Source of the DNA: Rhizophlyctis rosea
Taxonomy: Eukaryota; Chytridiomycota; Chytridiomycetes; Rhizophlyctidales; Rhizophlyctidaceae
Direction: 5' to 3'
Assembly (NCBI GenBank): GCA_027596075.1
Contig: JADGJC010000154.1
Coordinates: forward strand, 29,828 to 93,827
DNA length: 64,000 nt
In this document: positions 7,559-16,749 of the stretch, in pieces
Layout of the letters: every line of letters starts with the position of its first letter
How positions within the stretch are numbered: position 1 is the first letter of the stretch
The notes under the pieces: generated by a model
The model's database searches: none
What the model was told of the DNA's origin: nothing
Seen by the model: the letters and a program-made list of their open reading frames with translations, nothing else
Made by a program: the position numbers and the translations under genes

Positions 7559-10500
7559 ATGAGCATTCTCTCCGAATACGCAATATACATTCCGGGATAC
7601 ACCGACATCCACGTCATTCATGTCAATACCGCAACTTCGGTGGTCGTCCAGCGGGCACGCGCAATATTGGAAGGGACTGAGGGAGGGTCCGGACGAGCAG
7701 CCTCAAAGAGCGTGATCTGTAAAGGGCTCAAGACGGCAGACGAGGATGAAGATGGGCGGATCCAACGGGAATTCCGCATCATGGAAATGATCCATGGAGC
7801 AATCAATGGCGACAGCGGGAAAGAGAAGAGTGCCATCGACAGCGACAATGCTTTGGCAAGCATTTCTGCATCGAATGGGGATCTTTCATTGAGCGCAGAA
7901 CCGTCATCCATGTCTCCAACATCACCAACATCAACAAATTCCTCGACACAATCCAAACCACGAACTGCCCGTCGCCCTCGACCCCGTACCGGATCCCTCA
8001 GCCAACCCTCCATAACAGGTCGCCGCGCAGATCGAGTCGTCAAACCGGTCGGCATGGTCCACCAACAAGGCTGGTCCGTCATCATCATGGAAGACTTTGG
8101 TGGCACATCCCTCCGCGAAGGCGTCCTCGGCGGTCGTCGAAAAGGTCGTCGGTGGATATCCGAACCCTCATCAACCCATCCCCCACACCTCCAACCCGAA
8201 AACGTCGTCCTCACAAACCCGTTAATACCCAGCAAACTCCTCGACAATCTCATACGCTCCTCCTCCTCATCCTCATCCATTTTCTCTGGCCGATCATCCG
8301 TCACCAGTAGCGATACGAGCCCAACTGCCCGTCTCGCAAACGTCACCCGACCCCCGCTTGAGGAGTTCATCTCTATTGCCGTGCAACTGGCTGAAGCCCT
8401 TCAGATTATTCACGGGGCCCAGGTCATACATAAGGATATCAACCCGGATAATATCATTGTGAGAAGGGATCCGCAGACGAACCAGATTGAAGTCCAGGTG
8501 GTGGATTTCAATTTGGCAGAGGTTATGGATTCGAGGTTTGAGACTGCACCCAGGAACTATGTTCAGGGAACGTTGGAGTACTTGTCACCAGGTAAGTTTG
8601 AGGAGAATTGAGAGATTCAGGTTCGGATAGTGGGGAGAATGGCCGAGTTGCAGAAATGGTAACGATGAGAGGAATCCTCATGGAGGGATCGGAGGAACGT
8701 CATGGACTTTTCAGTGCCAAGTTCGGGTTTGCGAGACTGCTTGGCAAAATTGCGACTGACACAGGTTGGCATTTCCATATTCAGAGCAGACTGGTCGGAT
8801 GCAAAGAGTAGTGGACTACCGCACCGGTAAGATGGACTTACTCTGCTTTTGATCCTTAATGACGTAAACCTCACACTTTTGTGTTTCTGTCTGCTACGAA
8901 GATTTCTACAGTTTGGGAATAACATTATGGGAGTTACTAGTTGGAGTTCCTCCCTTCAGCTTTCGTGACGCTACGGTAACGATGCTGCTTCATACTGCGA
9001 CATTACTTTAGAGATGAACACAAAGAGACTGACATTACTGTCACTTGGTGTGGCACACACGATTCATTCAGGAATACGTGCATGCACATCTGGCGAAAGA
9101 GATCGAGTCTCCCGCCACTTACAACCCGAGCATACCGCCCATAATAAGCCACATTATTTTGAAGGCAAGGTGTCCGATGTCATTAGGAGAGCATTGAGCA
9201 TTATGAAATACTCTGATGCTAACCAAAATCAATACAATGTCTCATATCCTCCATCATAACAGCTCACAGCCAAAACCCCTGACGAACGCTACCAATCCGC
9301 CTCCGGCCTCCGGCACGACCTAACAAACCTCATCTCCCTCCTCCGCACCACCCGCCAACAGAATGCCACCCCACCCGACACCCTCCTAACCGACACCGAA
9401 GTCTTCGACGCCCTCAAAGATGTACCCATATCCTTAATCGGCGCCAAAGACTACCCACAGCGAATCTTCATCCCAACAAAACTGTATGGCAGAGAGAAGG
9501 AACAGAGACAGCTGCGACAGGCGTTTGAAAGGGTTGCTGGCGTGATGATTGGCGGCGTTGCGATTGGGGAAAAGAGTAAGAGTGAGGTTGTGCTGGTAAA
9601 GGGGACTAGTGGGACGGGGAAGAGTAGTTTGGTGCTTGATTTGAGGGATATGGTTGAAGAGAGGGGAGGGTTTTTCGGTAAGTTTGATGAACGGTATTTT
9701 GTGCGCGGGCCCGGTTTTCCATAATTTTGGCGAGGCAGTTCCAATGGTTGAATATGGACGGCTGACGTACCATCATTCTTCCATGAACAGTTACGGGCAA
9801 ATATGAAGACACCAACTACCAACGTCCCTTTGACGGCTTTATTCAAGCCGTTACTCAACTAATCCGTCACATCCTCACCGAACCAAGCGACGTGCTTGAC
9901 CATTGGACTAACCGCCTGAAACTTGTCATAAACGGTGACAAATCTCGTATTGCATGCGAGCTAGTACCTGAATTGGAGCTTATCTTGGGACATCCCGATA
10001 CGCCTAACGAGGAAACGGCACCCTCGCTGTCAGATGTGCAGAAACGACCAAGTTCGAGTAGGCCGGAGTCGGCGGGAGGCTCGACCGCAGGGCATGCGGC
10101 AACGTCGGCGTTGCACACTATAATTGCGGCGTTTGCAGATGTTCATCATCCGGTTGTGATGTACATAGATAACATGCAGGTTGGTTATTGGAAGGAGTTT
10201 AGCTCAACTCCGAATCTTCCCAAATGGAAGGATGTATCGAAGAAATTTCTAACACCAACCGTGTTTCTCAACTCAATAGTTCATGGACCACGGATCCCAA
10301 AAACTCCTCGAACACATCCTCCTCGACTCAAAAGCAACCCACTTCCTCATCATCGCTGCCGTCCGCGGCAAAGAAGCCGGAATCGGCACACCATTCTCCA
10401 ACGCCATGGAACGCCTAACACGAAAAGTACCCGAACGAATCCACCGCCTAACCCTCGAACCCCTCACCCAAACCATCGTTCGGGAAATGCTATCGGACGT

Positions 10501-16500: not shown

Positions 16501-16749
16501 GGTGGGCTGGACGCAACGCGGTGGGCCACGGGGAATCAGAGTGGGGAGATTGAGAGGATGGGGAGACGGTTGAGTTATACGGGGTATGAGGGGCGGACGT
16601 CGAGTCCTGTTGGTGCGGGGCAGCAGCCGGTGCTTGGTGCGGGGACGGTTGGAGGGGTGAAGAAGAGTGCTAGTCAGGAGTTTAGGGGGTTGACGGCGCC
16701 GTTGAGGAGTGCGGCGGGGAAGGCGAGGGATAGTAAACCTGTACAATAG
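7559..16749 (+). CDS. Giant kinase-like/AAA ATPase/GAF/cyclic-nucleotide phosphodiesterase fusion
   Basis: Fourteen exons keep phase from ATG 7559 to TAG 16747: 7559-8591, 8785-8826, 8902-8975, 9072-9164, 9263-9677, 9791-10179, 10280-10763, 10856-11892, 11948-12594, 12702-12882, 12971-14628, 14708-15039, 15123-15393, 15477-16749 (about 2642 residues). Residues ~1-435 are a Ser/Thr-kinase-like domain with IPGY start, Lys in ICKGLK, MEDFGG hinge, HKDINPDN (291-298) and DFN (316-318) in place of DFG. An AAA/NACHT-like ATPase follows, with Walker A GTSGTGKS at 528-535 and Walker-B-like YIDN. Residues ~840-1580 are helical, TPR-like. A GAF domain spans ~1615-1780. A class I PDE domain spans ~1940-2260 with YHNSTHAADV, HDVDHPG (2057-2063), FHHA, ADLNNP, EFFEQGD and QIGFMD, so metal and substrate residues look intact. 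The tail is Pro/Ser-rich. The N-terminal layout matches fungal and cyanobacterial kinase-AAA-GAF-histidine kinases, but a PDE occupies the histidine-kinase place. Inferred role: regulated cAMP/cGMP hydrolysis. Confidence 0.85.
9165..9262 (+). other. GC-AG intron within the kinase/PDE gene
   Basis: The exon ending ...ATT TTG AAG is followed by gcaagg and the next exon opens CTC ACA GCC AAA ACC after aacag. This joins the kinase C-lobe SHIILK to LTAKTPDERYQSA, the conserved end of this kinase family. The nearby GT at 9170 gives a frame that does not fit. The intron is therefore of the minor GC-AG class. Confidence 0.75.

What the first reader, a model, noticed from the sequence alone, without database searches (positions are those of the whole stretch)
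7559..16749. Kinase-AAA-GAF protein in which a class I cyclic-nucleotide phosphodiesterase replaces the histidine-kinase module
A single phase-consistent 14-exon gene joins a kinase-like domain, an NACHT/AAA ATPase with helical repeats and a GAF domain to a complete class I PDE with intact HDVDH-type metal motifs. The N-terminal three modules are the known front end of multisensor hybrid histidine kinases in fungi and cyanobacteria; their end module is normally HisKA-HATPase-receiver. Here the output would be cAMP/cGMP hydrolysis, which would make a one-protein sensor-to-second-messenger route. GAF next to PDE recalls animal PDE2/5/6, but with a different N-terminus. I am not aware of a described family with this layout.
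Basis: partly seen in the sequence, partly recalled or inferred. Interest (0 to 1): 0.9.

Follow-up and report, generated by a model that had tools for sequence, protein, structure and literature searches.

The report
Chytrid sensor protein with cAMP-degrading end
A chytrid fungus gene joins a sensor front end, known from histidine kinases, directly to an enzyme domain that breaks down cyclic nucleotides; other chytrids carry the same fusion, which looks like a one-protein sensor with a direct second-messenger output.

Summary
The window (Rhizophlyctis rosea, HDV00_002435) has one 14-exon gene, 7559-16749 +, 2635 aa: kinase-like domain, AAA_16 ATPase, helical region, one GAF and a complete class I phosphodiesterase. 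GAF and PDE start share one exon. The public model lacks 72 kinase residues. It is not a one-off: 23 of 58 listed proteins carry all four domains, all chytrid. Trees of kinase+AAA, GAF and PDE each recover the sampled fusions as one group, so the fusion probably arose once. The PDE resembles PDE4/7/8 (cAMP type), keeps its metal motifs and brings a linker shared with unfused fungal PDEs. The GAF lacks the K and D-E of the recalled cGMP motif. The front end drifts: DFN for DFG in 20 of 23 fusions, Walker B aspartate in 11 of 23 against 49 of 49 non-fusions. In bacteria this front end takes many outputs, so an output swap is a known kind; ten paper searches found no description of a class I PDE output. 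Best reading: a chytrid one-component regulator of cAMP. Activity, substrate and signal are untested.

The parts
7559..16749 (+). whole gene, 14 exons (7559-8591, 8785-8826, 8902-8975, 9072-9164, 9263-9677, 9791-10179, 10280-10763, 10856-11892, 11969-12594, 12702-12882, 12971-14628, 14708-15039, 15123-15393, 15477-16749); 2635 aa
   Evidence: spliced translation, phases and splice sites; junctions against relatives
7559..9319 (+). protein kinase-like domain (residues 1-433; Pkinase 268-433; VICK Lys 55, HKD 291-293, DFN 316-318)
   Evidence: Pfam; family alignment
9165..9262 (+). intron 4 with GC-AG ends
   Evidence: 26 of 27 covering relatives gap-free across the junction (IILK|LTAK)
9479..10354 (+). 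AAA_16 ATPase domain (residues 487-707; Walker A GTSGTGKS, Walker B MYIDNMQ)
   Evidence: Pfam
   Evidence: BLAST (39% over 782 aa to Spizellomyces P0002; 27-32% over 314-455 aa to P0059-P0064)
13430..13879 (+). GAF domain (residues 1612-1761)
   Evidence: Pfam; AlphaFold2 model; fold search
13826..13957 (+). predicted 44-residue continuous helix leaving the GAF (residues 1744-1787)
   Evidence: AlphaFold2 model
13964..14191 (+). pre-catalytic linker (about residues 1790-1865) shared with unfused fungal PDEs
   Evidence: searches (E at most 1e-3 against 166 proteins: P0027, P0028, P0030, P0031, P0032; only 11 chosen sequences): E 4.5e-9 to Blastocladiella PDE P0032, 3.3e-7 to P0027, 1.6e-6 to P0030, 0.07 to a fly PDE8 (P0040)
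14618..15555 (+). class I cyclic-nucleotide phosphodiesterase, PDEase_I (residues 2008-2238; YHNxxHA, HDVDH, CADLNN, CQIGF)
   Evidence: Pfam; PDB comparison; conservation
15625..16746 (+). low-complexity C-terminal tail (about residues 2262-2635), outside any Pfam match

Best explanation
The gene encodes a single-protein regulator that hydrolyses a cyclic nucleotide, most likely cAMP, under control of a multisensor front end. The front end (kinase-like domain, AAA_16 ATPase, helical region, GAF) is the module that elsewhere drives histidine kinases. Here the GAF is followed by a long helix and a linker into a class I PDE, so a signal read by the front end or the GAF would change PDE activity, probably within a dimer, and lower cAMP directly, with no phosphorelay. 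Shown by sequence: the gene, its domains, conservation of the PDE motifs, presence in many chytrids; supported by trees: one origin of the fusion. Inferred: catalysis, cAMP preference, dimeric allostery through the helix, and that the kinase and ATPase parts act mainly as a regulatory scaffold.
For:: one open gene with consistent phases; GAF and PDE start in one exon; four domains above curated cut-offs; 23 of 58 listed proteins (the window's own included) have all four domains, all from chytrids; the sampled fusions are one split in all three trees (kinase+AAA 23 of 72 tips, support 1.0; GAF 23 of 71, 1.0; PDE 27 of 55, 0.995). (32 rows): PDE motif residues are kept in every row with a letter at that column, except one D-to-N at the second HDxDH aspartate (30 of 31); the conserved glutamine in 22 of 22, the N after CAD in 27 of 27; best PDB relatives PDE4D/4B (238 bits), PDE8A (230), PDE7A (220), above PDE1B (188) and PDE3A (187); linker shared with unfused fungal PDEs. 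GAF followed by a 44-residue helix; in bacteria the same front end is joined to other enzymes, class III cyclases included, so joining it to a second-messenger enzyme is a known architecture. (PMC9069115, passages): Chk1 has the same order, S_Tkc 435-636, AAA-16 689-894, GAF 1828-1975.
Against: No activity, transcript or phenotype data. Some public models carry GAF and PDE without a kinase call (P0006, P0014, P0019, P0023, P0041) or without an AAA_16 call (P0011, P0024), and three full ones carry extra unrelated domains (P0009, P0018, P0022), which looks like merged neighbouring genes, so gene models in these sets are not all sound. DFG is DFN in 20 of 23 fusions and Walker motifs are changed in several (counts depend on one alignment), so ATP-driven regulation may be absent. 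By PDB sequence search the GAF's best hits are an HD-GYP protein (E 1.9e-7), PDE10A (1.5e-4) and a GAF of a cGMP-specific PDE (0.0022; titled as bound to cAMP), ahead of sensor-kinase GAFs, so cyclic-nucleotide binding by the GAF is not excluded. A GAF may also serve dimerisation only (recalled). The AlphaFold2 model is moderate (pLDDT 73, pTM 0.47, 23 sequences).
Confidence: 0.72

Rival explanations
1. The PDE is constitutive and the front end mainly places it: the kinase-like, AAA and helical regions act as an assembly or localisation scaffold, with no signal input.
For: Walker B aspartate kept in 11 of 23 fusions against 49 of 49 non-fusions, Walker A lysine 19 of 23 against 49 of 49, DFG changed to DFN in 20 of 23. 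AAA and helical-region identity to Spizellomyces P0002 is 36-39% while GAF and PDE are 64-72%.
Against: In the same comparison the GAF (64%) and kinase part (65% over 179 aa) are more conserved than the linker (55%), and the kinase Lys, HxD Asp and Asn are kept in 22, 23 and 21 of 23 fusions, which suggests that ligand or nucleotide binding still matters. The window protein itself keeps both Walker residues.
Confidence: 0.2
2. The front end is an active Ser/Thr kinase that phosphorylates the PDE or other targets; hydrolysis is secondary.
For: VICK lysine, HKDINPDN and an APE-like SPE are conserved in most rows that cover them; Pkinase scores 80.7 bits.
Against: The DFG glycine is Asn in 20 of 23 fusions, while 49 non-fusions have G (31) or S (18). 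Some members lose the HxD Asp (P0022, P0024) or the DFG Asp (P0022, P0025, P0026, P0042).
Confidence: 0.08
3. Two neighbouring genes (a kinase-AAA-GAF gene and a PDE gene) were joined by eye and by gene finders.
For: No transcript evidence was available here; several public models are shorter, and three (P0009, P0018, P0022) carry extra domains that look like merged neighbours.
Against: Exon 11 joins GAF, linker and PDE start without a stop. The linker is 55% identical over 119 aa in Spizellomyces P0002. Public models from 16 named genera have the same joint.
Confidence: 0.03

Closest known systems
Fungal group X hybrid histidine kinases (Candida Chk1, fission yeast Mak2/Mak3)
   Same: Order and spacing of Ser/Thr kinase domain, AAA_16 and GAF (PMC9069115, passages: Chk1 2471 aa, 435-636, 689-894, 1828-1975; window protein 268-433, 487-707, 1612-1761). 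Described only, no Chk1 sequence was compared.
   Different: No HisKA, HATPase_c or receiver; a class I PDE instead.
Bacterial multisensor proteins of the HstK type (mostly cyanobacterial where named)
   Same: Kinase+AAA part homologous, 33-39% identity over residues 270-870 in the listed non-PDE hits; GAF 28-43% to the six checked (P0059-P0064).
   Different: Outputs there are HisKA/HATPase, receiver, GGDEF, SpoIIE phosphatase, class III cyclase, HD-GYP or STAS. Of 120 listed hits 13 have PDEase_I, all of them chytrid (only 120 of 1899 hits were listed).
PDE8, PDE7 and PDE4 (class I, cAMP-specific)
   Same: Catalytic domain and key residues; linker weakly like a fly PDE8 (E 0.07).
   Different: Animal PDE8 has receiver-like and PAS domains in front (recalled); here it is kinase-AAA-GAF.
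GAF-PDEs PDE2/5/6/10/11
   Same: A GAF before a class I PDE; same GAF fold; PDE10A GAF is the second-best PDB sequence hit of the GAF.
   Different: One GAF, K and D-E of the recalled NKFDE motif absent, PDE domain of another subtype, different N-terminus.
Dictyostelium RegA (receiver-PDE) (recalled; a passage of PMC9069115 mentions histidine kinases controlling cAMP through a response regulator)
   Same: Logic of sensor-kinase machinery controlling a cAMP PDE.
   Different: RegA needs a phosphorelay; here the sensor front end and PDE are one chain.
TOMM system kinase/cyclase fusion protein (TIGR03903)
   Same: By its name a kinase fused to a nucleotide cyclase; weak match to the front end (59.8 bits for P0001, 124.1 for P0002, cut-off 705.75).
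   Different: Output there is a cyclase, i.e. synthesis and not hydrolysis; far below the family's cut-off.

Membership tests
Class I cyclic-nucleotide phosphodiesterase | PDEase_I domain with HNxxH, HDxDH and CAD motifs | tested here: met
   277.4 bits; residues present in the window protein and, in 32 family rows, in all rows with a letter except one N at the second HDxDH aspartate
Class I cyclic-nucleotide phosphodiesterase | invariant purine-binding glutamine (role recalled) | tested here: met
   Q2213, 22 of 22 rows with a letter (10 gaps)
Class I cyclic-nucleotide phosphodiesterase | hydrolysis of cAMP or cGMP | not testable with these tools
   needs an enzyme assay
Group X hybrid histidine kinase | kinase-AAA_16-GAF front end | tested here: met
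   Chk1 layout from passages of PMC9069115
Group X hybrid histidine kinase | HisKA, HATPase_c and receiver | tested here: not met
   no such Pfam match at E up to 0.001 in 2635 aa; therefore not filed as a histidine kinase
GAF-PDE (PDE2/5/6/10/11) | tandem GAF domains (recalled) | tested here: not met
   one GAF stretch
GAF-PDE (PDE2/5/6/10/11) | NKFDE motif in GAF, spacing N-K ... F-x3-D-E (recalled) | tested here: not met
   window has N-D ... F-TQE-R-L; N and F align with PDE10A's N and F (whose alignment ends before the D-E); K position is D in 11 and K in 4 of 23 fusions
PDE8 | receiver-like and PAS domains before the PDE (recalled) | tested here: not met
   none found by Pfam
PDE8 | PDE8-type pre-catalytic linker | tested here: inconclusive
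   E 0.07 to fly PDE8 P0040, but E 4.5e-9 to a Blastocladiella PDE, both in a set of 11 sequences
Active Ser/Thr protein kinase | Lys, HxD and DFG | tested here: inconclusive
   Lys and HxD kept, DFG is DFN
Active AAA_16 ATPase | Walker A Lys and Walker B Asp | tested here: met
   K534 and D679 present in the window protein; changed in several relatives; activity itself untested

The most novel reading that the evidence does not exclude
A phylum-wide chytrid family in which the front end of a multisensor histidine kinase, with its kinase and ATPase turned largely into non-catalytic nucleotide or ligand sensors, directly gates a cAMP phosphodiesterase: a eukaryotic one-component relative of group X kinases that bypasses the phosphorelay and sets cAMP in chytrid cells, possibly in zoospores.
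Probability: 0.4. Interest if true: 0.78.

Novelty: new variant of a known kind. Interest (0 to 1): 0.6.

Why it matters
A survey of sensor kinases in early-diverging fungi searched with HisKA, HATPase_c and REC (PMC5285503, section 4 read); a search of that kind passes over this family. If the PDE is gated by the front end, chytrids have a direct sensor-to-cAMP switch unlike any Dikarya system I know of. It would also give a simple in vitro system (one chain, one product) to ask what the kinase-AAA-GAF front end of Chk1-type proteins senses, a question harder to test in phosphorelay kinases.

Tried and rejected
Rejected: two joined genes (exon 11 and relatives speak against it). Thought less likely: a GAF taken over from a PDE2/5/6-like enzyme; the GAF is 37-43% identical to the GAFs of four bacterial front-end proteins (P0060, P0062, P0063, P0064), 28-29% to two others (P0059, P0061) and 25% (over 102 aa) to a Eutreptiella GAF-PDE (P0016). 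Against this, ranks PDE10A and another PDE GAF above sensor-kinase GAFs among solved structures. Not settled: descent from a fungal hybrid kinase. The only other front-end paralogue found in the genome (C602, HDV00_011111, whose counts are lower bounds) is a canonical hybrid kinase, but it groups with bacterial proteins (0.98 in the kinase+AAA tree, 0.66 in the GAF tree) and shares only 31% with the window protein. No protein named as a Dikarya group X kinase was seen among the 120 listed hits of either front-end search (many rows carry no name), so the deeper root is open.

Literature: 10 searches ran; none listed a paper on a kinase-AAA-GAF-PDE protein or, by title and abstract start, on a chytrid class I PDE of this kind. 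Papers looked at: PMC5285503 (outline and section 4); term passages only of PMC9616733, PMC12264004, PMC4046227, PMC8371127, PMC1592074, PMC4965123, PMC9069115, PMC2176072, PMC1262709.

Rows dropped: the front-end trees used 22 fusions plus the window protein; P0006, P0011, P0014, P0019, P0022, P0023, P0024, P0041, P0042 were left out by choice. P0065 (Irineochytrium) was counted as a fusion although Pfam calls no PDE in it and only 74 aa of PDE match. Non-fusions were 48 hits that I picked from the two searches plus the C602 kinase. The GAF tree dropped P0084. The PDE tree dropped P0041, P0042, P0043, P0056, P0065, P0083 (too little of the PDE aligned).
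Full report
Gene model. Reading the + strand, 14 exons from ATG 7559 to TAG 16749 join with consistent phases into 2635 residues. Twelve introns have GT-AG ends and intron 4 has GC-AG ends; lengths are 75 to 193 bases. The GAF, the linker and the first part of the PDE lie in one exon (12971-14628), and the kinase end and the Walker A motif lie in another (9263-9677), so those joints between modules do not depend on guessed introns. 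At each junction I asked how many of 31 relatives cover a 16-residue stretch and align to it without gaps: from 16 of 28 (junction 5) and 17 of 29 (junction 9) to 31 of 31 (junction 10); for the three PDE junctions 28 of 31, 26 of 29 and 21 of 24. Junctions 6, 8 and 9 lie in poorly conserved stretches (mean identity 0.17-0.24), so they are weakly tested. The public model of the same gene, HDV00_002435 of Rhizophlyctis rosea (P0001, 2563 aa), skips 72 residues of the kinase C-lobe; Spizellomyces P0002 has the matching stretch.

Domains. Pfam finds Pkinase 268-433, AAA_16 487-707, GAF 1612-1761 and PDEase_I 2008-2238, all above cut-off, and no HisKA, HATPase_c or receiver. Between AAA and GAF lie about 900 residues with no Pfam call, homologous to the same stretch of bacterial front-end proteins (27-32% over 314-455 aa for P0059-P0064); 'helical repeats' is a label, not a test. 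Chk1 of Candida has the same order and spacing (PMC9069115, passages).

Relatives. A search with the PDE region against proteins of like length listed 58 proteins; 23, the window's own included, carry kinase, AAA_16, GAF and PDE by precomputed Pfam, from 16 named genera and one unnamed member of Chytridiales: Rhizophlyctis, Spizellomyces, Geranomyces, Powellomyces, Fimicolochytrium, Gaertneriomyces, Clydaea, Obelidium, Blyttiomyces, Siphonaria, Phlyctochytrium, Quaeritorhiza, Polyrhizophydium, Boothiomyces, Entophlyctis, Cladochytrium. Lineages looked up for five species all fall in Chytridiomycetes; for the rest I rely on recall. Five other hits have GAF and PDE without the front end (P0016, P0039, P0047, P0050, P0057). 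Three of the 23 models carry extra unrelated domains (P0009, P0018, P0022), probably merged neighbours. Entophlyctis helioformis has three copies listed on contigs of the same length (128172), which suggests one contig. A second search with the front end listed 120 of 1899 hits: 13 have PDEase_I, all chytrids, one of them (P0083) not in the first list. Of the rest, those with names are mostly bacterial, mainly cyanobacterial, with outputs such as histidine kinase, receiver, GGDEF (P0059, P0061, P0131, P0138, P0148), class III cyclase (P0060, P0078, P0098, P0110, P0127), SpoIIE phosphatase (14 rows), HD-GYP (P0139) and STAS (P0096, P0113).

One origin. In FastTree trees the sampled fusion proteins form one split with support 1.0 for kinase+AAA (23 of 72 tips), 1.0 for GAF (23 of 71) and 0.995 for PDE (27 of 55). 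With midpoint rooting the nearest neighbours of the fused PDE are unfused fungal PDEs (P0027, P0028, P0030, P0031, P0032), three of which carry an ANF-receptor domain by precomputed Pfam. All five share the pre-catalytic linker (four of them aligned). So the unit that was joined is probably linker plus catalytic domain, and the joint lies just after the helix that leaves the GAF.

Same genome, canonical version. The only other front-end match found in the genome lies on C602. Its spliced protein shows kinase, AAA, GAF, HisKA, HATPase and two receiver stretches by eye; the public model HDV00_011111 has the matching Pfam calls (P0167). Its front end is 42-48% identical to the other proteins listed, mostly cyanobacterial where named, and 31% to the window protein; it groups with bacterial proteins (0.98 in the kinase+AAA tree, 0.66 in the GAF tree). 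The organism thus holds both output types on distantly related front ends. This does not show that the fusion came from a histidine kinase.

Active sites. In 32 family rows the PDE motif residues are kept wherever the row has a letter, apart from one D-to-N. Best solved relatives are PDE4D/4B, PDE8A and PDE7A (best 60 of 151 shown). The Asn after CAD, which I recall as the adenine-contacting residue of cAMP-type PDEs, is kept in 27 of 27. In contrast the front end is eroding: the third residue of DFG is N in 20 of 23 fusions while 49 non-fusions have G (31) or S (18); the Walker A lysine is kept in 19 of 23 against 49 of 49 and the Walker B aspartate in 11 of 23 against 49 of 49, with E in 4 of 23 (one alignment). 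The window protein itself keeps both Walker residues. By the recalled spacing of the NKFDE motif the window GAF has N-D and F-TQE-R-L, so cGMP binding of the PDE2/5/6 kind is not predicted; but PDE10A and a cAMP-bound GAF are among its best solved relatives, so a cyclic-nucleotide ligand is not excluded.

Structure. An AlphaFold2 model of residues 1590-2009 (23 sequences, pLDDT 73, pTM 0.47) shows a GAF fold, one 44-residue helix (1744-1787), further linker helices and a low-confidence stretch (1862-1935) before the PDE. Foldseek matches GAF domains of an HD-GYP protein, PDE2/5/6/10 and sensor kinases, which confirms the fold but does not choose a ligand. A long helix between a sensor and a dimeric output enzyme would fit coupling by helix movement, as discussed for signalling helices (PMC1592074, passages); for this protein it is inference.

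Verdict. The gene and architecture are real and conserved; the PDE is very likely catalytic and probably prefers cAMP; regulation by the front end is likely but unproven. It is a new variant of a known kind, the known kind being multisensor front ends with exchangeable outputs. Ten literature searches found no description, though the sequences sit in public sets without a family name.

Noticed in passing
L050 (G000:C602:199000-208900): Canonical kinase-AAA-GAF-HisKA-HATPase-REC-REC hybrid kinase (HDV00_011111) whose front end is 42-48% identical to the other proteins listed, mostly cyanobacterial where named; a candidate for transfer from bacteria.
   Followed up: partly
P0046 (metagenome protein, 1842 aa): Class III nucleotide cyclase, AAA_16 and class I PDE in one chain: possible synthesis and breakdown of cyclic nucleotide in one protein.
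   Followed up: partly
P0028, P0030, P0031 (chytrid proteins): ANF-receptor-like ligand-binding domain joined to a class I PDE with the same kind of linker; an apparent receptor-type PDE in chytrids (precomputed Pfam; P0030 rechecked).
   Followed up: partly
genome G000, 11 contigs: PDEase_I matches on 11 contigs (21 exon-level matches, lower bounds), so roughly 11 class I PDE genes; rich for a fungus (comparison recalled).
   Followed up: no
window:2480-3271: Upstream open frame on the + strand with an arrestin C domain (39.8 bits) and an SH3 match below cut-off.
   Followed up: no
window:58791-61286: Retroelement-like RNase H piece (above cut-off) and integrase piece (below cut-off) on the - strand, in a stretch of strong negative GC skew.
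   Followed up: no
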